This document shows positions 1,724-10,651 of a DNA stretch of 27,333 nucleotides, piece by piece. This DNA is from a virus: positions 1-27,333 of IMG/VR virus record IMGVR_UViG_3300020192_000069; one strand, given 5' to 3'. The position numbers were made by a program, and so were the translations under genes. Under the pieces are notes generated by a model, which saw only the letters and a list, made by a program, of their open reading frames with translations, searched no databases and was not told the origin of the DNA. Numbering within the stretch: position 1 is the stretch's first letter; the number at the start of each line of letters is the position of its first letter.

Positions 1724-2203
1724 TTATTTAATAATCTTTATATCAGCAACATCAACTCCAAATTTTTCAGCAATTTCATCAAGTGTTATTTCAGTAATTT
1801 CTTGTTTGAACATATTTGAATTTACATATTGCAATGACCATCCATCTTGTTTTACTGCTCCCAAACATAGTTCAGGTGTTTGTTCTTTTACATATTGCAA
1901 TGCATTTCCATTTTGTTTTACTGCTTCAAAACATAGTTCAGGTGTTTGTTCTTTTACATATTGCAATGCATATCCATTTTGTTTTACTGCTTCCAAACAT
2001 AGTTCAGGTGTTTGTTCTTTTACATATTGCAATGCATCTCTATTTTGTTTTACTGCTTCCAAACATAGTTCAGGTGTTTGTTCTTTTACATATCGCAATA
2101 CATATCCATTTTGTTTTACTGCTTGCATTGCTTCATTTCCAGCTAAATTACATTTATTTAAAAGTACATCGTATTCTTTTTTGTAGTCTTGTAGTTTTGT
2201 CAT
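1724..2203 (-). CDS. DUF4116-like repeat protein, 159 aa
   Basis: After a 27-residue helical head (QDYKKEYDVLLNKCNL), the protein is made of 22-aa units of the type AVKQNGYALQYVKEQTPELCLE, four full copies plus a partial fifth (residues about 28-127). A unique tail begins NSNMFKQEITEI. The units resemble the DUF4116 family (AVKQNG..LQYV), helical repeats of unknown function, mainly known from bacteria and large viruses. The next gene (2216-2827) has nearly the same head and tail and six full units, so the two are tandem duplicates that differ in repeat number. They are likely protein-binding solenoids. Confidence 0.75.
   Translation of the reverse strand: MTKLQDYKKEYDVLLNKCNLAGNEAMQAVKQNGYVLRYVKEQTPELCLEAVKQNRDALQYVKEQTPELCLEAVKQNGYALQYVKEQTPELCFEAVKQNGNALQYVKEQTPELCLGAVKQDGWSLQYVNSNMFKQEITEITLDEIAEKFGVDVADIKIIK
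1823..2122 (-). repeat. 66-bp tandem repeats in the 159-aa gene
   Basis: About 4.5 tandem 66-bp units encode the 22-aa DUF4116-like motif. Copies differ at only a few bases, mostly at the codons after AVKQ (NGY, NRD, NGN, DGW). Low divergence indicates recent expansion or ongoing homogenisation. Confidence 0.85.
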
Positions 2204-2215
2204 GATTTTAATTCT

Positions 2216-2827
2216 TTATTTAATAATCTTTATATTAGTAACATCAACTCCAAATTTTTCAGCAATTTCATCAAGTGTTATTTCAGTAATTTCTTGTTTG
2301 AACATATTTGAATTTACATATTGCAATGCATCTCCATCTTGTTTTACTGCTTCCAAACATAGTTCAGGTGTTTGTTCTTTTACAAATTGCAATGCATATC
2401 CATTTTGTTTTACTGCTTGCAAACATAGTTCAGGTGTTTGTTCTTTTACATATCGCAATACATATCCATCTTGTTTTACTGCTTCAAAACATAGTTCAGG
2501 TGTTTGTTCTTTTACATATTGCAATGCATCTCTATTTTGTTTTACTGCTTCAAAACATAGTTCAGGTGTTTGTTCTTTTACATATTGCAATGCATATCCA
2601 TTTTGTTTTACTGCTTGCAAACATAGTTCAAGTGTTTGTTCTTTTACATATCGCAACGCATTTCCATTTTGTTTTACTGCTTCAAAACATAGTTCAAGTG
2701 TTTGTTCTTTTACATATTGCAATACATATCCATTTTGTTTTACTGCTTGCATTGCTTCATTTCCAGTCAAATTACATTTCTTTAAAAGTGCATCGTATTC
2801 TTTTTTGTAGTCTTGTAGTGTTTCCAT
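2216..2827 (-). CDS. DUF4116-like repeat protein, 203 aa (paralogue)
   Basis: Paralogue of the 159-aa protein encoded next to it. The head is METLQDYKKEYDALLKKCNL, followed by six full 22-aa units and a partial seventh (residues about 28-171), then the same tail from NSNMFKQ. Variable positions are concentrated after AVKQ and at the end of each unit (LCFE, LCLQ, LCLE). The start is two bases after the stop of the transglycosylase frame, so it belongs to the same leftward transcript. The function is unknown. The solenoid architecture suggests binding of a host or phage protein. Confidence 0.75.
   Translation of the reverse strand: METLQDYKKEYDALLKKCNLTGNEAMQAVKQNGYVLQYVKEQTLELCFEAVKQNGNALRYVKEQTLELCLQAVKQNGYALQYVKEQTPELCFEAVKQNRDALQYVKEQTPELCFEAVKQDGYVLRYVKEQTPELCLQAVKQNGYALQFVKEQTPELCLEAVKQDGDALQYVNSNMFKQEITEITLDEIAEKFGVDVTNIKIIK
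2315..2746 (-). repeat. 66-bp tandem repeats in the 203-aa gene
   Basis: Six complete 66-bp units plus a partial seventh, closely matching the units at 1823-2122. Together the two genes carry about a dozen near-identical units within 1 kb, a likely hotspot for recombination and for assembly error. Confidence 0.85.
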
Positions 2828-3834: not shown

Positions 3835-4446
3835 TTAAAATTCAATAAGTGTTGCTAATATATCGTTTACTTCCTTAAGGAAGACATGTTCTTTTGCTTC
3901 TAGTTCTGCTATTTTTTCTGTAAGCTCTGTGCGAGTTGTGCGGATAATGTGAATAGGGTGTGAAGGTATATCAGGATTGTATGCAACAAAGTCAAGCCAT
4001 AGGAGAGTGTTGTTGACTACAAAGTACTGTACTACTTGCCAAATATAATCATCGGGAATTTTATTCTCAAGCCAGTACTTTATGTAGTTTTTATGTTCTG
4101 GACATTTAACTTCAATTGCTCCAAAATCACCTACAAGACCATCAGGACTATTCCCAAGGTATTGTTCACTATCGTGTTCACAAAAACCTACGCGTTCTAC
4201 TTGTGTACCTGTTGCTTCTTCGTACGCTCCTATTGCAAACTCTTCTAACCTGTTACCGCGGGCGATTGGGTGTTCATTCTCGTACTCTTCATCAGTAACT
4301 TTCAAACGCTCTCCGACAATGTCGTAGATTGATTCTTGTCGAGCTTTCGGTGTCCCCATGAGTCCTTTTGCTTGCGTACCGGATACAACACCAAGTTTTA
4401 TTTGATGCCATTCAGGTGTCTGTTGCTGCATGTTGTGTTTCTTCAT
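3835..4446 (-). CDS. YqaJ/lambda-type recombination exonuclease
   Basis: 203 aa with the pattern of the YqaJ viral recombinase (PD-(D/E)XK) family: TPEWHQIKLGVVSGT (W13, the usual W..R/K..G.T entry motif), RGNRLEEFAIGAYEEATG (acidic E68/E69), then GNSPDGLVGDFGAIEVKCP with catalytic D102, E112 and K114. The length is normal for the family. Enzymes of this type digest the 5' strand of linear dsDNA and feed a single-strand annealing protein. The 149-aa protein just upstream occupies the place where such a partner often sits. The role is probably phage recombination or concatemer replication. Confidence 0.85.
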   Translation of the reverse strand: MKKHNMQQQTPEWHQIKLGVVSGTQAKGLMGTPKARQESIYDIVGERLKVTDEEYENEHPIARGNRLEEFAIGAYEEATGTQVERVGFCEHDSEQYLGNSPDGLVGDFGAIEVKCPEHKNYIKYWLENKIPDDYIWQVVQYFVVNNTLLWLDFVAYNPDIPSHPIHIIRTTRTELTEKIAELEAKEHVFLKEVNDILATLIEF

Positions 4447-4447
4447 A

Positions 4448-4897
4448 TTATTTAATTGTTTTTTTAGGCTTTACAATTTTAGGTGAAGGAACACTAACAG
4501 GTACTACGACGCTAGTAGGTACTACGTACCTACCTGTCATCTGATTCACTGCACTCTTAATCTCAGGATTTTGACGTTCTAATTCTGAGAATTTAATCCA
4601 CACTATTTTTAACTCTTCAAGAGTCTTTGCTTCTTGTGCTTTTGCAATAGCGCCTTTTATATTTACATGCACACCAATAGGTGCAATGTTCTTAGTGTAG
4701 TAAATGTTGTGCTGTTCAATAAAATGGTTTTTATATTTATTGATACTTTCAAGCATTTCATCTTCACTTCCAAAACGCGTACCCTGTGCAGTCACAAGTG
4801 ATATTGATGCGTTTAATGAGTTGAAGTACGCAATACTCATTCCCTTGCGCCATTGTGCATCTTGTATAAGTTTTTGTTGATTGGTATCGTTATTCAT
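4448..4897 (-). CDS. Unknown 149-aa protein beside the exonuclease
   Basis: The stop is one base before the exonuclease start, so the two are coupled. The N-terminus is helical (WRKGMSIAYFNSLNASISL). A central stretch, AIAKAQEAKTLEELKIVWIK, resembles the small helical C-terminal segment seen in several RecT-like recombinases, and the C-terminus is a low-complexity Val/Pro/Lys tail. No complete RecT or Erf domain is visible. An annealing-protein partner is a hypothesis based on position. Confidence 0.55.
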   Translation of the reverse strand: MNNDTNQQKLIQDAQWRKGMSIAYFNSLNASISLVTAQGTRFGSEDEMLESINKYKNHFIEQHNIYYTKNIAPIGVHVNIKGAIAKAQEAKTLEELKIVWIKFSELERQNPEIKSAVNQMTGRYVVPTSVVVPVSVPSPKIVKPKKTIK

Positions 4898-5052
4898 ATA
4901 TGTATATTTAATAATTCTTCGTCTGTGCTATCTTTAAAAGGAATTTCATCACTACTATCATCATCCTCGTCCATTTTTTCGGGGAGTATGATCTCTTCAT
5001 TATCAAGACAATTAGGGTCAAATCCGGATGGGTAAAAGTCTTTTTCACTCAT
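4894..5052 (-). CDS. Small acidic protein, 52 aa
   Basis: ATG at 5052 encodes 52 residues, and the TGA overlaps the next ATG (ATGA, 4897-4894). The protein is very acidic, with a MDEDDDSSDE run in its second half. It is the first gene after the operator promoter at 5083-5111. Its start region is tandemly repeated (ATGAGTGAAAAAC, then ATGAGTGAAAAAG), and the first copy (ATG at 5065) ends after six codons. It could be a DNA mimic or protein-binding peptide, but the function is unknown. Confidence 0.55.
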   Translation of the reverse strand: MSEKDFYPSGFDPNCLDNEEIILPEKMDEDDDSSDEIPFKDSTDEELLNIHI

Positions 5053-5082
5053 GTTTTTCACTCATTTATCTGATATATATAG

Positions 5083-5111
5083 AGTATAATATGTACACCT
5101 GTACAAGTCAA
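5083..5111 (-). promoter_or_regulatory. Early promoter with TGTACA operator
   Basis: On the minus strand: -35 TTGACT (5111-5106), a 17-bp spacer and -10 TATACT (5088-5083). The spacer contains TGTACACCTGTACA on the plus strand (5092-5105), the same TGTACA-N2-TGTACA arrangement as at 3619-3632. A GTTATCCCCAG element lies at 5115-5125. It drives the acidic protein, the 149-aa protein, the exonuclease and the 54-aa gene. Confidence 0.7.
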
Positions 5112-5126
5112 GAAGTTATCCCCAGA

Positions 5127-5498
5127 TTATAGTTTAACCTCATATATTGATATTTCTCTTGCTTTTTCAAATGACAGTGACTTCATAGTTTTTTTGCACT
5201 CTACTATCTTAAAAGCAAGTATAAAAAAGACGCACTTAGGATACTTAATAGCCACATATGAAGCTAGCCCAGGGGGAGTTGAAATAATATCGCATGTTTT
5301 TAGGCGGAGATCCGCATCACTCCATTTGATAACCAGTCCACTTTCTTCGGCAGCAAGAAGCCCCGGGAGTTGTTGAGGCTCGAAGTTCGAGAGATTAAAA
5401 CGATTGGTGAGGGTACTCTTTATCTCAATATGTCCGTATATCTTTTTTAATGATATGTACTTTTCTATACGTGGAGTAATGTTTGCTTCGTGTTTCAT
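5127..5498 (-). CDS. RecU-like Holliday junction resolvase or PD-(D/E)XK nuclease
   Basis: 123 aa. The segment from GHIEIKSTLTNRFN to NFEPQQLPGLL has the RecU/resolvase arrangement: E-x-K (E25, K27), then a loop with Phe/Asn and a Glu-x-Gln-Gln motif at the start of a helix, followed by CDII (D69) and a hydrophobic strand (YVAIKYP). The ATG overlaps the helicase stop (ATGA, 5498-5495), so the two are translated together. The likely role is cutting branched replication intermediates before packaging. A more general nuclease is the alternative. The usual N-terminal Asp motif is not obvious. Confidence 0.6.
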   Translation of the reverse strand: MKHEANITPRIEKYISLKKIYGHIEIKSTLTNRFNLSNFEPQQLPGLLAAEESGLVIKWSDADLRLKTCDIISTPPGLASYVAIKYPKCVFFILAFKIVECKKTMKSLSFEKAREISIYEVKL

Positions 5499-6772
5499 AC
5501 AGTATTAGTCATTATCTTTTCTTGAAAATCCTCTCCTGCAAGTATTGTTTTATGACATGCTTCGTCCATACCTCCTTTTGTAATAAGTGATATGTAAAGA
5601 TTTTTCTTAATTGCATCCGCACGTTGTACGCGACCTAAACTTTGATTGTAGTTACGGTGTCGATTTGATTTTGATGCGTGTATAACAGTCGGGCAACTCT
5701 TCCATTCCCAGCCTGCACTTATCCTTGCCGAGCACACAATGATGCACTTCTCAAGTTTTTCCGCGTCTTCAAGGAGTGTTTTACGGTCTTTTGTAGCCCC
5801 TGTAAGGGTAAGGACATGGTAGCCCTGGTCTGTAAGTGATTTTTCTATTGCCTCTATCTGTCCAATGTAGTCTGCAAAAATGAGAAGCTTCGGGAACTCT
5901 TCTGCGTACTTCAAAATGAGAGGTATTTTTTCAGTATCATAATATATTGTTTTTCGTACAATGTGGTCGACACGGTCATTTGTTGTAACGAGTTCTGCAT
6001 CATACCGTACCCCATTCTCTATAGACCTCAGTGCGGTCCTTAGTGCCATAGGGTCAGCTACCGTTCTTTGTAGGTGTCGTATCTCATCCTTTTGAGCTTT
6101 AGTGAGTTCCACATACTTTTCAATGAATGTCTGAGGTGGTACGTCAAAGAAAGATGAAAGTGCCCCAAAATACCCGAGTTTTAGTAACGATTCCGCAAGT
6201 CGATCTTTCGATGACTGGTCTTTCTTTGGAAGCCATATACTACGATACCCCATCTTTACTTGCGTATAGAACACTGAACGAAAGTTGGTATAGTTCCAAT
6301 TCTTGCCTAGCAGTCGTGCTATTGCGAACACATGCATCGGTTTACTTGCAGGTGTGGCTGAGAGCATGTAAAAACGCATTGGCTGGTACTTTGCAAGGTA
6401 CGCAACAAGTGCATCATGCATTTGTGAAGTTTTTGCAATTTGTACCCCTTTACGTTGTATAGTATCAGGAAGTATTCCAAAGAAGTTATCAGCCTCGTCT
6501 ATGATGAGAGTATCTGCCCCTCCGTATATCATCCAGTTTTTCCTAAAGTCTTCTTTACTCACTACTTTTATATCGAGCTGTATATCGAACGTAGTAAGAT
6601 TGCGCTCGAATGTTTGATCGTCACGTCCTTGTTTTTCACAGACAATGAGGGTGTAGCCGCGAGCGAGAGTGAGCGCGAGAAGTGATTTTCCAGTCCCTGT
6701 TCCAAACCCTAAAAGGGTATGCGTAGGATCGTCGTCGATAATACGTTTTTGGTGATCAAAAAGAGGGATCAT
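5495..6772 (-). CDS. SF2 DEAD-type DNA helicase
   Basis: 425 aa with a full set of superfamily 2 motifs: Walker A GFGTGTGKS (residues 22-30), motif II DEAD (92-95), motif III LSATPAS (137-143), a second RecA-like domain with LLIFADY and LTGAT, and motif VI QSLGRVQRAD near the C-terminus. The general layout is of the SNF2/UvsW type, an ATP-driven translocase acting on branched or double-stranded DNA. It overlaps the RecU-like nuclease gene by four bases and follows the small RHH regulator by six bases. Together they form a replication/recombination unit transcribed leftward from 6917-6944. Confidence 0.9.
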   Translation of the reverse strand: MIPLFDHQKRIIDDDPTHTLLGFGTGTGKSLLALTLARGYTLIVCEKQGRDDQTFERNLTTFDIQLDIKVVSKEDFRKNWMIYGGADTLIIDEADNFFGILPDTIQRKGVQIAKTSQMHDALVAYLAKYQPMRFYMLSATPASKPMHVFAIARLLGKNWNYTNFRSVFYTQVKMGYRSIWLPKKDQSSKDRLAESLLKLGYFGALSSFFDVPPQTFIEKYVELTKAQKDEIRHLQRTVADPMALRTALRSIENGVRYDAELVTTNDRVDHIVRKTIYYDTEKIPLILKYAEEFPKLLIFADYIGQIEAIEKSLTDQGYHVLTLTGATKDRKTLLEDAEKLEKCIIVCSARISAGWEWKSCPTVIHASKSNRHRNYNQSLGRVQRADAIKKNLYISLITKGGMDEACHKTILAGEDFQEKIMTNTV

Positions 6773-6958: not shown

Positions 6959-6988
6959 TTGCATTTTAAAATAGATACGTTGTATACT
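6959..6988 (+). promoter_or_regulatory. Rightward promoter, leaderless layout
   Basis: -35 TTGCAT (6959-6964), 18-bp spacer, -10 TATACT (6983-6988), then six bases (ATAGCT) before the ATG at 6995. It is divergent from the RHH promoter, with only about 14 bp between the two -35 boxes, so one bound protein could control both. Confidence 0.6.
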
Positions 6989-6994
6989 ATAGCT

Positions 6995-7909
6995 ATGCAA
7001 AATAATAATGTGATTACTGACTGGCTTCATCACCGAAAAATAACCGATAAAGTCATTGAAGACTTCACTATCGGTACTGATACTAGTGGTCGCATTATTA
7101 TTCCCATACGAAACAGTGACGGAGATTTTGTTTTTAATAAATATCGACGTAATCCATTACGTGAAGAAGGAAATAAATATACCTATGAATCAGGAGGAAG
7201 TGTTACCCTTTTTGCATACGACAAAGCAAAATCCTATGATACCATACTTTTTTGTGAAGGTGAAATTGATGCACTTGTTGCATGGAGCGCAAATATTCCA
7301 GCGGTATCTTCAACAGGTGGTGCAATGTCATTTAAGCAGGATTGGATAGAGTATTTCTCTACTAAGAGTATTATCTTGTGTTTTGATAATGACGAAGCTG
7401 GAGGCAATGGTATGGCAAAAGCACTTGAAATTGTCCCTCATGCAAAAATACTCTTTTTACCCGATCGTCCAGGCGTAAAGGATATATCTGATTATGTGAC
7501 TAGTGGGGGTAATTTACAGACCCTTTTACAAAGCGCAGTACGATTATCTTCAATGGAGGCAATTATTGCTCACAGAAATGATCGTGTTGCACTATGGCAA
7601 TCAACTTTTTTTCATGATGCCTATATTCGATATTATACTGAAAAACCAAAACAATCTCGTGATGTTGGTATACGAAGTGATGACAGGGTAATTCGTGCAA
7701 AGCAGTATCCTATTGATACATTAGTGAGTTTTACTGTTGCAGGAAAAGCAAAATGCCTTTTTCATAATGAAAAAACACAGTCAATGCACTATTATGCTGA
7801 TACTAATGTTTGTTATTGCTTTGGGTGCAGTAAGCGTGCTGATGCTATTGATATATATATGATTCTTCATAACTGCTCATTTTTAGAAGCAGTGAGTGCA
7901 CTACAATGA
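6995..7909 (+). CDS. Primase-like protein: TOPRIM first, CHC2 zinc finger last
   Basis: 304 aa from ATG 6995. Residues about 30-170 form a DnaG-type TOPRIM domain: a lead-in RIIIPIRNSDG, acidic motif LFCEGEID (E88), and CFDNDEAG (D131, D133). Residues 254-304 form a CHC2-type zinc finger: C254-x2-H257, then C275-x2-C278 with an extra C273 and the typical KRADAIDIYM follow-up. In DnaG and T7-type primases the zinc finger comes first, so the order here is reversed. A distinct RNA-polymerase domain N-terminal to TOPRIM is short or missing. It is followed with a four-base overlap by a P-loop ATPase, so primer synthesis at the fork is the likely role. Confidence 0.8.
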   Translation: MQNNNVITDWLHHRKITDKVIEDFTIGTDTSGRIIIPIRNSDGDFVFNKYRRNPLREEGNKYTYESGGSVTLFAYDKAKSYDTILFCEGEIDALVAWSANIPAVSSTGGAMSFKQDWIEYFSTKSIILCFDNDEAGGNGMAKALEIVPHAKILFLPDRPGVKDISDYVTSGGNLQTLLQSAVRLSSMEAIIAHRNDRVALWQSTFFHDAYIRYYTEKPKQSRDVGIRSDDRVIRAKQYPIDTLVSFTVAGKAKCLFHNEKTQSMHYYADTNVCYCFGCSKRADAIDIYMILHNCSFLEAVSALQ

Positions 7910-9153
7910 AACTCATTGACCTAAAAACAAAGATACAAGAGTATCAGTATATGGAGGACACTGACATCATAGATATCTCACTTGCTTCTATTATTGCTAC
8001 ACGACTTTGTTTAGGTGACCCAGTATGGATGATTCTTATTGGTCCATCTTCTGGGGGTAAGTCGCAGATATTGCGTCCACTTGCACTGACTGATCCAAAA
8101 TTCCTGCACCGCGTTGATGATCTTACTGAAAACACCTTTCTATCAGGTGGCAATATACAAGGTGGGGGGGATATATCACTTCTTACAAAAATTGGTGAAA
8201 AAGGCATGATTGTTGTATCAGATATGACAGTGATTTTTTCAAAAGCAAAAGAGAGTCGAAATGCTATCCTTTCACAACTTCGTATGATTTATGACGGTGA
8301 AATAATAAAGTTTGTCGGTAATAAACCACAACCATTGTCATGGCGTGGCAGTCTTGGAATCCTTGCAGGTTCAACACCATCTATTTATGCTCACTTTGAG
8401 GAAGTTGCTGACATGGGAGAACGTTTTATTTATTATCGTATGAAGGAATATGATGCAGAAAAGGCTACCAGACTTTCTATGAAGCGTACTATTTATGGAA
8501 AAGAACTCGATACTGTGCTATCTAATCTTTATATTGAGTATTTAAAAGAAGTTATCCAATTACATAAGCATGAGGTCATTGTAATACCAGAAGACCTACA
8601 AAATCGTATTATTAGTATCGCTATGCTTTCTGAGAAGATACGCACTACAAGCCATGTAGATTTCAAAGACCGTGCTATTGATAAAATCCCAGTACCTGCT
8701 ATGCCAATGCGTGTTGCACTTCAATTAACGGCATTAGCGAAGGGGTTGTATATCATGCGTAAACATGAAGGTGGAGAGCTTGTAGAAGCTGATATCCATA
8801 TGATTAACTGGTGTGGTTATTCACTTGCAAATGAAGAGAAAAGGGCATGTTTAAAGATATTAGCTACTATTCCTTATAATAGTGTATTGAGGACACAAAT
8901 TATTGCTGATGATATTGGTATTACTACCACTGTTATTAACATGACACTACAGAATATGGCAGCAACAGGTGTATTGAAGCGTACAGGTGATGTTAATGGA
9001 CTTTCATGGAGAATACAACGATTACAAGATTGGGAGCTTATTAGAGAGATTGAGGGCATTAAGAATGAAAGTAAATATAAAGATCGTGAGATTTCTATTG
9101 AAGAAATTGAAGAGACCAAAAATGCCGCACAAAGTGTGTACGATTCCTTTTAA
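7906..9153 (+). CDS. P-loop ATPase, likely replicative helicase
   Basis: 415 aa. Walker A is GPSSGGKS (residues 46-53) and the Walker B-like strand is MIVVSD (D106). Further polar motifs lie in RGSLGILAGSTPS. The last third (from about residue 290) looks like a winged-helix domain (LRTQIIADDIGITTTVINM). The arrangement resembles MCM/AAA-type or DUF3987-like phage replication ATPases rather than hexameric DnaB. The start overlaps the primase stop (ATGA), which supports a primase-helicase pair. The gene is followed by a terminator at 9185, so it ends this operon. Confidence 0.75.
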   Translation: MKLIDLKTKIQEYQYMEDTDIIDISLASIIATRLCLGDPVWMILIGPSSGGKSQILRPLALTDPKFLHRVDDLTENTFLSGGNIQGGGDISLLTKIGEKGMIVVSDMTVIFSKAKESRNAILSQLRMIYDGEIIKFVGNKPQPLSWRGSLGILAGSTPSIYAHFEEVADMGERFIYYRMKEYDAEKATRLSMKRTIYGKELDTVLSNLYIEYLKEVIQLHKHEVIVIPEDLQNRIISIAMLSEKIRTTSHVDFKDRAIDKIPVPAMPMRVALQLTALAKGLYIMRKHEGGELVEADIHMINWCGYSLANEEKRACLKILATIPYNSVLRTQIIADDIGITTTVINMTLQNMAATGVLKRTGDVNGLSWRIQRLQDWELIREIEGIKNESKYKDREISIEEIEETKNAAQSVYDSF

Positions 9154-10207: not shown

Positions 10208-10216
10208 TGCTATAAT
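10208..10216 (+). promoter_or_regulatory. Extended -10 promoter for terminase genes, leaderless layout
   Basis: TGCTATAAT is a perfect extended -10 (TATAAT at 10211-10216), followed by six bases (GTCAAT) and the ATG at 10223. No good -35 is visible, as expected for an extended -10. The upstream gap 10136-10207 otherwise holds only A/T-rich sequence with a CACATATGTG palindrome. Confidence 0.6.
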
Positions 10217-10222
10217 GTCAAT

Positions 10223-10651
10223 ATGATGGATAGACTACTAAACCCACAACAAGAGCTATTTCTCTCAGAGTATTTAAACCCTAAATCCCCTAATTTTTCC
10301 AATGCACTACAAAGCGGATTAAAGGCAAAATACTCTCAACAATATTCAGAGAACATAACTCATTTATTGCCTGACTGGCTATCGGAATCCATGGGTGATA
10401 TGAAACGTCTAAGAAAAGCTGAAAATATACTAGATAAAACGCTAGACATGGAATCAGTTGATGAAGAGGGAAAGGTAGACAATCAACTATTAAAGACACA
10501 AACAGATACAGCTAAATTCTTTGCAGAAAGACTTAATAAACAAAAATACTCAACTAGATCAGAGCAAACTGGTAAAGACGGTAAAGATTTATTACCTGAA
10601 ACTATGACCGAAGAAGATAGGAAAGCATTACTAGGTTTAATAGGGAAATAA
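10223..10651 (+). CDS. Terminase small subunit (probable)
   Basis: 142 aa. LNPQQELFLSEYLNPKSPNF followed by SNALQSGLKAKYS is the usual terminase small-subunit beginning (helix-turn-helix-like packaging recognition). The remainder is helical with a charged tail (MTEEDRKALLGLIGK). It is seven bases upstream of the large subunit. The start could be ATG 10223 or the next codon, ATG 10226. The first matches the -10 spacing. It recognises phage DNA and regulates the TerL motor. Confidence 0.75.
   Translation: MMDRLLNPQQELFLSEYLNPKSPNFSNALQSGLKAKYSQQYSENITHLLPDWLSESMGDMKRLRKAENILDKTLDMESVDEEGKVDNQLLKTQTDTAKFFAERLNKQKYSTRSEQTGKDGKDLLPETMTEEDRKALLGLIGK

What the first reader, a model, noticed from the sequence alone, without database searches (positions are those of the whole stretch)
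6995..7909. Primase with reversed domain order (TOPRIM before CHC2 zinc finger)
The TOPRIM motifs (EGEID at 88-92, DNDEAG at 131-136) come before a C-terminal CHC2-type zinc finger (C254, H257, C275, C278). In DnaG and T7-like primases the zinc finger is first. This may be a circular permutation and may define an unusual phage primase lineage. The zinc finger reads template sequence, so its new position would affect primer site choice.
Basis: partly seen in the sequence, partly recalled or inferred. Interest (0 to 1): 0.65.

Follow-up and report, generated by a model that had tools for sequence, protein, structure and literature searches.

The report
Phage primase with zinc domain last
A group of uncultured phages carries a DNA primase whose zinc-binding part, normally at the front, sits at the back, next to the gene for its probable helicase partner, and the sequences suggest that this rearrangement happened once and has been kept.

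Summary
The 304-residue protein at 6995-7909 (+) is a DnaG-type RNA-polymerase/TOPRIM domain (1-216), a disordered linker (217-228) and a complete CHC2 zinc-binding domain (229-304). Pfam, AlphaFold plus structure comparison and 37 distinct proteins with the same order agree. A -10-like element ending 6 nt before the ATG, conserved among relatives, fixes the N-terminus, so no front zinc finger is missed. A TOPRIM tree puts all 19 sampled permuted proteins in one clade. Three of its four nearest relatives carry the zinc domain as a separate gene, and the C-terminal zinc domains group with such stand-alone ones, not with N-terminal ones. Fusion of a stand-alone CHC2 gene behind TOPRIM is therefore likelier than strict circular permutation. 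The next gene (7906-9153; 4-nt overlap in 24 of 37) is an AAA+ ATPase whose model best matches MCM helicases. In five records a CHC2 domain precedes that ATPase without TOPRIM. Most likely this is a two-subunit primosome. No paper I found describes the order. The effect on priming is untested. New variant of a known kind.

The parts
6983..6988 (+). -10-like hexamer TATACT ending 6 nt before the ATG (predicted leaderless start)
   Evidence: 34 of 35 distinct permuted-primase starts have at least 4/6 matches to TATAAT 5-8 nt upstream, against 22.5% of 6020 other ATGs
6995..7909 (+). permuted DnaG-type primase gene, 304 aa
   Evidence: translation, Pfam, family alignment A3
6995..7642 (+). RNA-polymerase/TOPRIM domain, residues 1-216
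   Evidence: AF2 model; VIA match to T7 gp4 residues 73-268, Z 18.7, and to A. aeolicus primase 2au3 residues 116-373, Z 18.2
7256..7270 (+). TOPRIM motif EGEID, residues 88-92
   Evidence: E88, G89, E90, D92 invariant in A3
7385..7402 (+). TOPRIM motif DNDEAG, residues 131-136
   Evidence: D131, N132, D133, A135, G136 invariant in A3
7643..7678 (+). flexible linker, residues 217-228
   Evidence: pLDDT below 50 at 217-228
7679..7906 (+). C-terminal CHC2 zinc-binding domain, residues 229-304
   Evidence: Pfam PF01807; VIA Z 8.7 to B. stearothermophilus DnaG zinc-binding domain 1d0q_A, model 221-304
7754..7828 (+). zinc ligands C254, H257, C275, C278
   Evidence: invariant in A3; motif in 37 of 37 distinct proteins
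7906..9153 (+). AAA+ ATPase with C-terminal winged helix, 415 aa; starts in the 4-nt overlap ATGA (7906-7909) with the primase stop; probable replicative helicase partner
   Evidence: AF2 model; MCM AAA+ domains fill the 50 listed VIA rows, best Z 18.1; 4-nt overlap in 24 of 37 distinct permuted genes

Best explanation
The gene encodes a working DnaG-type primase in which the zinc-binding domain stands at the C-terminus instead of the N-terminus, most likely because a stand-alone CHC2 gene became fused behind a zinc-less TOPRIM primase gene once in this phage lineage. The TOPRIM domain makes the RNA primer. The CHC2 domain, on a flexible linker, binds the single-stranded template and selects the start site, either folding back on its own catalytic domain or serving a neighbouring subunit. 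The product is made together with the AAA+ ATPase encoded next (overlapping stop and start), and the two probably form a two-subunit primosome: the job that phage T7 gp4 does in one chain. Shown here: domain identity, order, conservation, one clade for the sampled permuted proteins, gene order, folds by prediction. Inferred: zinc binding, primer synthesis, contact with the ATPase, helicase activity, route of fusion.
For: Pfam and fold evidence for both domains. Catalytic acidic motifs and zinc ligands kept in 35 of 37 distinct proteins. TOPRIM tree: 19 of 19 PERM rows in one clade (95/90), joined to L044-L047 (90/89). CHC2 tree: 18 PERM rows plus 5 stand-alone rows in one clade (99/95), apart from 33 N-terminal rows. 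L045, L046 and L047 carry separate CHC2 genes (open stretches of 101, 128 and 111 codons) and TOPRIM fused to another ATPase in a second gene (AAA_25 by Pfam in L045). ATPase-seeded scan: 45 of 55 loci have the permuted primase followed by the ATPase (with L005 and L040). The junction overlaps by 4 nt in 24 of 37. ATPase residues K52, D106, T157, R173 and R269 are invariant in 18 of 18.
Against: No biochemistry. The CHC2 tree has 95 columns and an unsettled bootstrap, and L022's CHC2, which has no TOPRIM, falls inside the permuted rows, so gain and loss of TOPRIM cannot be ordered with confidence. The join to L044-L047 is below the starred threshold. Two proteins (L164, L181) lack the DNDxAG string. 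The ATPase matches no Pfam AAA family above cut-off, so its helicase role rests on a predicted fold.
Confidence: 0.75

Rival explanations
1. The C-terminal CHC2 domain serves mainly the downstream AAA+ ATPase (loading it or tying it to DNA), and TOPRIM is an exchangeable N-terminal add-on; priming site choice is not its main task.
For: In five of the 55 ATPase loci a CHC2 domain with a helical-looking N-terminal region and no TOPRIM stands directly before the ATPase (L132, L133, L134, L140, L179), and no TOPRIM was found elsewhere in those five records. CHC2 next to ATPase is thus kept where TOPRIM is not.
Against: 45 of 55 loci have TOPRIM in the same chain, with catalytic residues conserved. 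The five records may be fragments (search note). A stand-alone CHC2 could work with host DnaG.
Confidence: 0.2
2. True circular permutation: tandem duplication of a ZBD-TOPRIM gene, then loss of the first ZBD and the second TOPRIM.
For: The end product has the order expected from such a route.
Against: The nearest TOPRIM relatives have no ZBD found in the chain and three of four have a separate CHC2 gene; C-terminal ZBDs group with stand-alone ones. No duplicated intermediate was seen among the ORFs examined (the one 'both' row, L005, is upstream read-through).
Confidence: 0.15
3. The TOPRIM protein is a nuclease or decaying primase rather than an active primase.
For: TOPRIM occurs in nucleases and topoisomerases too (general knowledge); the fold list includes RNase M5 and topoisomerases at lower Z.
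Against: The DnaG-type N-terminal half is present: the model aligns from residue 1 to primase and Twinkle chains at Z 13.8-18.7, against 10.7 or less for other TOPRIM proteins. A CHC2 domain is the primase zinc domain.
Confidence: 0.05
4. Artefact: the gene is a mis-joined or mis-started piece of an ordinary primase.
For: One relative, L171, is indeed a broken copy.
Against: 37 distinct proteins with the same order from many contigs, a conserved N-terminus and a conserved -10-like element before the ATG.
Confidence: 0.02

Closest known systems
DnaG (bacterial primase)
   Same: RNA-polymerase/TOPRIM fold and CHC2 fold
   Different: DnaG has ZBD, then RPD, then helicase-binding domain (passages of PMC6163395); here the ZBD is last and stands where the helicase-binding domain would be
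Phage T7 gp4 primase-helicase
   Same: closest RPD fold (5ikn_D, Z 18.7, 181 aligned, 3.0 A; tied with several DnaG rows); primase and ATPase made together
   Different: gp4 is one chain, ZBD first, RecA-type helicase (recalled); here two genes, ZBD last, ATPase of MCM-like fold
Split phage primases with a stand-alone CHC2 gene (here L045-L047; stand-alone zinc ribbon in group 2 jumbo phages, passage of PMC7824862)
   Same: nearest TOPRIM relatives and same CHC2 clade for L045-L047
   Different: two separate genes, and TOPRIM is fused to a different ATPase (AAA_25 by Pfam in L045)
Fused TOPRIM-ATPase proteins L090, L101, L182
   Same: homologous ATPase (E 2e-31 and 2e-22 for L090 and L101; 5e-32 for L182)
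   Different: single chain; N-terminal zinc-finger-like segment, degenerate by eye in L090 and L101 and with four cysteines in L182; no C-terminal CHC2
MCM helicases
   Same: AAA+ fold of the downstream ATPase, best Z 18.1
   Different: no MCM N-terminal domain; no Pfam MCM match seen

Membership tests
DnaG-type primase | RNA-polymerase domain with TOPRIM fold | tested here: met
   VIA Z 18.2 to 2au3, 198 aligned, 3.4 A; Z 18.1 to 5guj, 190 aligned, 3.4 A; Pfam Toprim_2
DnaG-type primase | acidic metal-binding motifs of TOPRIM | tested here: met
   EGxD and DNDxAG in 35 of 37 distinct proteins, the window's included; L164 and L181 lack DNDxAG
DnaG-type primase | CHC2 zinc-binding domain present | tested here: met
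   PF01807 E 6.7e-11; 15 of 15 members; Z 8.7 to 1d0q_A, 84 aligned, 3.5 A
DnaG-type primase | zinc-binding domain at the N-terminus, before the RPD (stated for the family in PMC9198812, passages) | tested here: not met
   ZBD at 229-304, after TOPRIM
DnaG-type primase | C-terminal helicase-binding domain | tested here: not met
   protein ends with the ZBD at residue 304
DnaG-type primase | primer synthesis at specific template sites | not testable with these tools
   needs biochemistry
T7 gp4-type primase-helicase | helicase domain in the same chain | tested here: not met
   no helicase domain in the 304 aa; separate ATPase gene
MCM helicase (downstream ATPase) | MCM-type AAA+ fold | tested here: met
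   all 50 listed VIA rows are MCM chains, best Z 18.1; 9gjw_4 270 aligned, 4.2 A; predicted model only
MCM helicase (downstream ATPase) | N-terminal DNA-binding domain before AAA+ | tested here: not met
   model residue 1 or 2 aligns at chain residue 288 or later in all 50 rows; nothing lies N-terminal to AAA+ in the 415 aa
MCM helicase (downstream ATPase) | sequence match to the MCM family model | tested here: inconclusive
   no MCM family among the 25 of 37 families shown for 18 members; none for the window protein

The most novel reading that the evidence does not exclude
In this phage lineage the CHC2 domain has become the tether between a bacterial-type primase and an MCM-fold, possibly 3'-to-5', helicase: it occupies the C-terminal place of the helicase-binding domain and is kept next to the ATPase even where TOPRIM is absent. 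This would be a primosome of hybrid make-up in which start-site recognition and helicase docking are combined in one moved zinc domain.
Probability: 0.25. Interest if true: 0.7.

Novelty: new variant of a known kind. Interest (0 to 1): 0.55.

Why it matters
DnaG-type primases are described as ZBD first, RPD second. A whole lineage with the ZBD last is a natural test of whether covalent position matters for start-site choice and primer length, or whether the ZBD is only a tethered module, as in-trans models hold. The pairing of a bacterial-type primase with an ATPase of MCM-like fold, by stop/start overlap, also offers a small two-gene system for studying how primase and helicase are coupled.

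Tried and rejected
Wrong start or hidden N-terminal zinc finger: rejected. Same order in annotated phages: of the INPHARED matches for which I placed both domains, CHC2 came first in all 10 records (8 by comparing: GU936714, NC_015463, MT836986, AGRM01000002, MT835469, MT837412, BK070063, BK070092; plus MT837613 and MW247147 by reading the genes). This is 10 of 2529 matching records, not a census. KC821618 has TOPRIM after a four-cysteine motif and no C-terminal CHC2. Prophage or host copies: 16 loci from genome contigs, none with CHC2 after TOPRIM; host unknown. The plasmid search gave no place covering 80% of the query. The ATPase has no match in INPHARED at E 0.01 and no solved-structure sequence match beyond winged-helix and, as I judge, chance rows. 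Rfam and tRNA scans of the window were empty. A sigma-70 two-hexamer scan did not list the -10-like element.

Papers: eight searches for permuted, C-terminal-zinc or split primases or MCM-like partners listed no description of this order; a ninth was on in-trans use of the zinc domain. Passages were read in PMC7824862, PMC6163395, PMC9198812, PMC5512222, PMC5862659 and PMC3012046; other titles were seen only in listings. Absence from these open-access papers does not show absence from print.

L171 was first taken as a split intermediate; its two pieces lack about 40 residues between them (A3 positions 164-204), so I read it as a damaged copy. A fold search of the viral library listed only TOPRIM-type primases and similar proteins; I did not check their domain order.

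Full report
What is there. The window is a 27,333-base virus record of unknown host. The finding is an open reading frame at 6995-7909 on the + strand, 304 residues. Pfam places Toprim_2 at 87-167 (E 2.9e-12) and the CHC2 family at 251-303 (E 6.7e-11), both above cut-off. The PHROGs primase/helicase family phrog_239 matches residues 6-181 from profile position 113 onward, while others, such as phrog_360, match only the C-terminal CHC2 part. So the protein seems to begin where ordinary primases have already passed their zinc finger.

Structure. AlphaFold2 on a 15-row alignment gave mean pLDDT 88.3 with one stretch below 50, residues 217-228. VIA-align placed residues 1-216 on the RNA-polymerase domains of T7 gp4 (5ikn_D, Z 18.7, 181 aligned, 3.0 A) and A. 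aeolicus primase (2au3, Z 18.2, 198 aligned, 3.4 A), and residues 221-304 on the zinc-binding domain of B. stearothermophilus DnaG (1d0q_A, Z 8.7, 84 aligned, 3.5 A). Each half is a complete known domain; only the order is unusual. The profile of the family also finds 2au3 with its two domains in the opposite order.

Relatives. A single-sequence scan of IMG/VR gave two loci. With alignments, scans gave 17 loci and 80 kept of 471. I sorted the ORFs with HMMs built from A3. Together with the ATPase-seeded scan there are 67 permuted ORFs with 37 distinct cores. At the same limits no CHC2-first protein appeared, which reflects the strictness of those limits, not rarity. The TOPRIM motifs and the zinc motif are all kept in 35 of 37. 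Over 114 TOPRIM ORFs, redundancy included, a zinc motif by regex lies in front in 60, behind in 25, on both sides in 1 and was not found in 28; the 'both' case is L005, whose upstream open stretch is read-through.

The true N-terminus. In 34 of 35 distinct loci with 30 bases upstream, the start ATG lies 5-8 nt after a hexamer with at least four matches to TATAAT (often preceded by TGn, spacing mostly 6), against 22.5% of 6020 other ATGs in the same loci; TA---T holds in 30 of 35 against 7.1%. The start was chosen as the ATG nearest to the profile's first position, and the best of four spacings was taken in both sets. Spacing 6 would put the transcription start on the A of the ATG, so the mRNA is probably leaderless (inference). 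This argues strongly that nothing is encoded in front.

Origin. In a TOPRIM tree of 100 rows the 19 permuted rows are one clade (95/90), joined with lower support (90/89) to four split primases, L044-L047. L045, L046 and L047 carry a stand-alone CHC2 gene upstream and a TOPRIM gene that continues into another ATPase (AAA_25 by Pfam in L045); L044 starts at its contig end. In a CHC2 tree of 56 rows the permuted domains and five stand-alone ones form one clade (99/95), apart from 33 N-terminal domains; the script dropped up to thirteen named rows with other kinds of zinc motif before the tree was built. That tree has only 95 columns and its bootstrap had not settled. The simplest reading is that the zinc domain first became a separate gene and was later fused behind TOPRIM. 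L022's TOPRIM-less CHC2 falls inside the permuted rows, so a later exchange of TOPRIM for a helical region, or the reverse, is possible.

The partner. The next gene (7906-9153) overlaps the primase stop by 4 nt; the same overlap occurs in 24 of 37 distinct cases, the other 13 lying 1-788 nt apart. It has no family match beyond weak winged-helix and other sub-threshold hits. Its model (pLDDT 87.3) matches MCM AAA+ domains in all 50 listed VIA rows, best Z 18.1; Foldseek also lists the BchI chelatase subunit. A Walker A lysine, a Walker B aspartate, a sensor-like threonine and two candidate arginines are invariant in 18 of 18; these motif names are my reading of the alignment. It lacks the MCM N-terminal domain, so I call it MCM-like in fold, not an MCM. 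Of the 55 ATPase loci, 45 have the permuted primase before it, 5 have a CHC2 protein with a helical-looking N-terminal region and no TOPRIM, 3 have too little upstream sequence, 1 (L171) has a broken permuted gene, and 1 (L182) is a fused TOPRIM-ATPase; L005 and L040 are counted as permuted. Near-identical contigs are included in these counts, and L161 and L179 are two ends of one contig. No TOPRIM was found elsewhere in the five TOPRIM-less records, though these may be fragments.

How it probably works. The TOPRIM half polymerises the primer; the CHC2 half reads the template and helps start synthesis; the ATPase moves along DNA and carries the primase. A flexible linker and in-trans use of the ZBD, reported for other primases (title of Corn et al. 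2005 in a reference list; content recalled), explain how the order can change without loss of function. That the ZBD stands at the end next to the partner gene, and stays beside the ATPase where TOPRIM is absent, suggests that it may also contact the ATPase; this is inference.

Novelty. Stand-alone primase zinc ribbons are in print for group 2 jumbo phages (PMC7824862, passages), and MCM-family helicases in phages and bacterial mobile elements are too (PMC5862659, passages). I found no description of TOPRIM followed by CHC2 in eight searches, but the library is open-access only and domain databases may list the architecture. I rate it a new variant of a known kind.

Noticed in passing
window 6983-6994 and related loci; also window 10208-10222: -10-like elements 6 nt before ATG suggest leaderless transcripts for the primase operon (34 of 35 loci at spacings 5-8); a similar element (TGCTATAAT, 6 nt) precedes the gene at 10223.
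   Followed up: partly
L022 3297-4001 (same contig as L133), L132, L134, L140, L179: CHC2 domain joined to a helical-looking region instead of TOPRIM, directly before the same ATPase; a similar stand-alone protein is annotated in Siphoviridae sp. ctPCi537 (MW202577).
   Followed up: partly
L090, L101, L182: Single proteins that fuse a zinc-finger-like N-terminus, TOPRIM and the homologous MCM-like ATPase.
   Followed up: partly
window 1724-2203 and 2216-2827 (-): Two neighbouring genes of tandem DUF4116 repeats (Pfam E 5.6e-39 and 7e-55) with a 66-bp DNA period, 92-93% matches within each array.
   Followed up: partly
L171 1917-2773: A permuted primase gene broken by a frame change with about 40 residues missing between the pieces.
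   Followed up: no
L164 797-1837, L181 4048-5001: Permuted primases that lack the DNDxAG string of TOPRIM; activity may differ.
   Followed up: no
window 3835-6772 (-): A YqaJ-type exonuclease (Pfam E 1.6e-22) and a DNA helicase lie on the opposite strand upstream of the primase; a similar helicase-like ORF lies upstream on the opposite strand in L002 (by eye).
   Followed up: no
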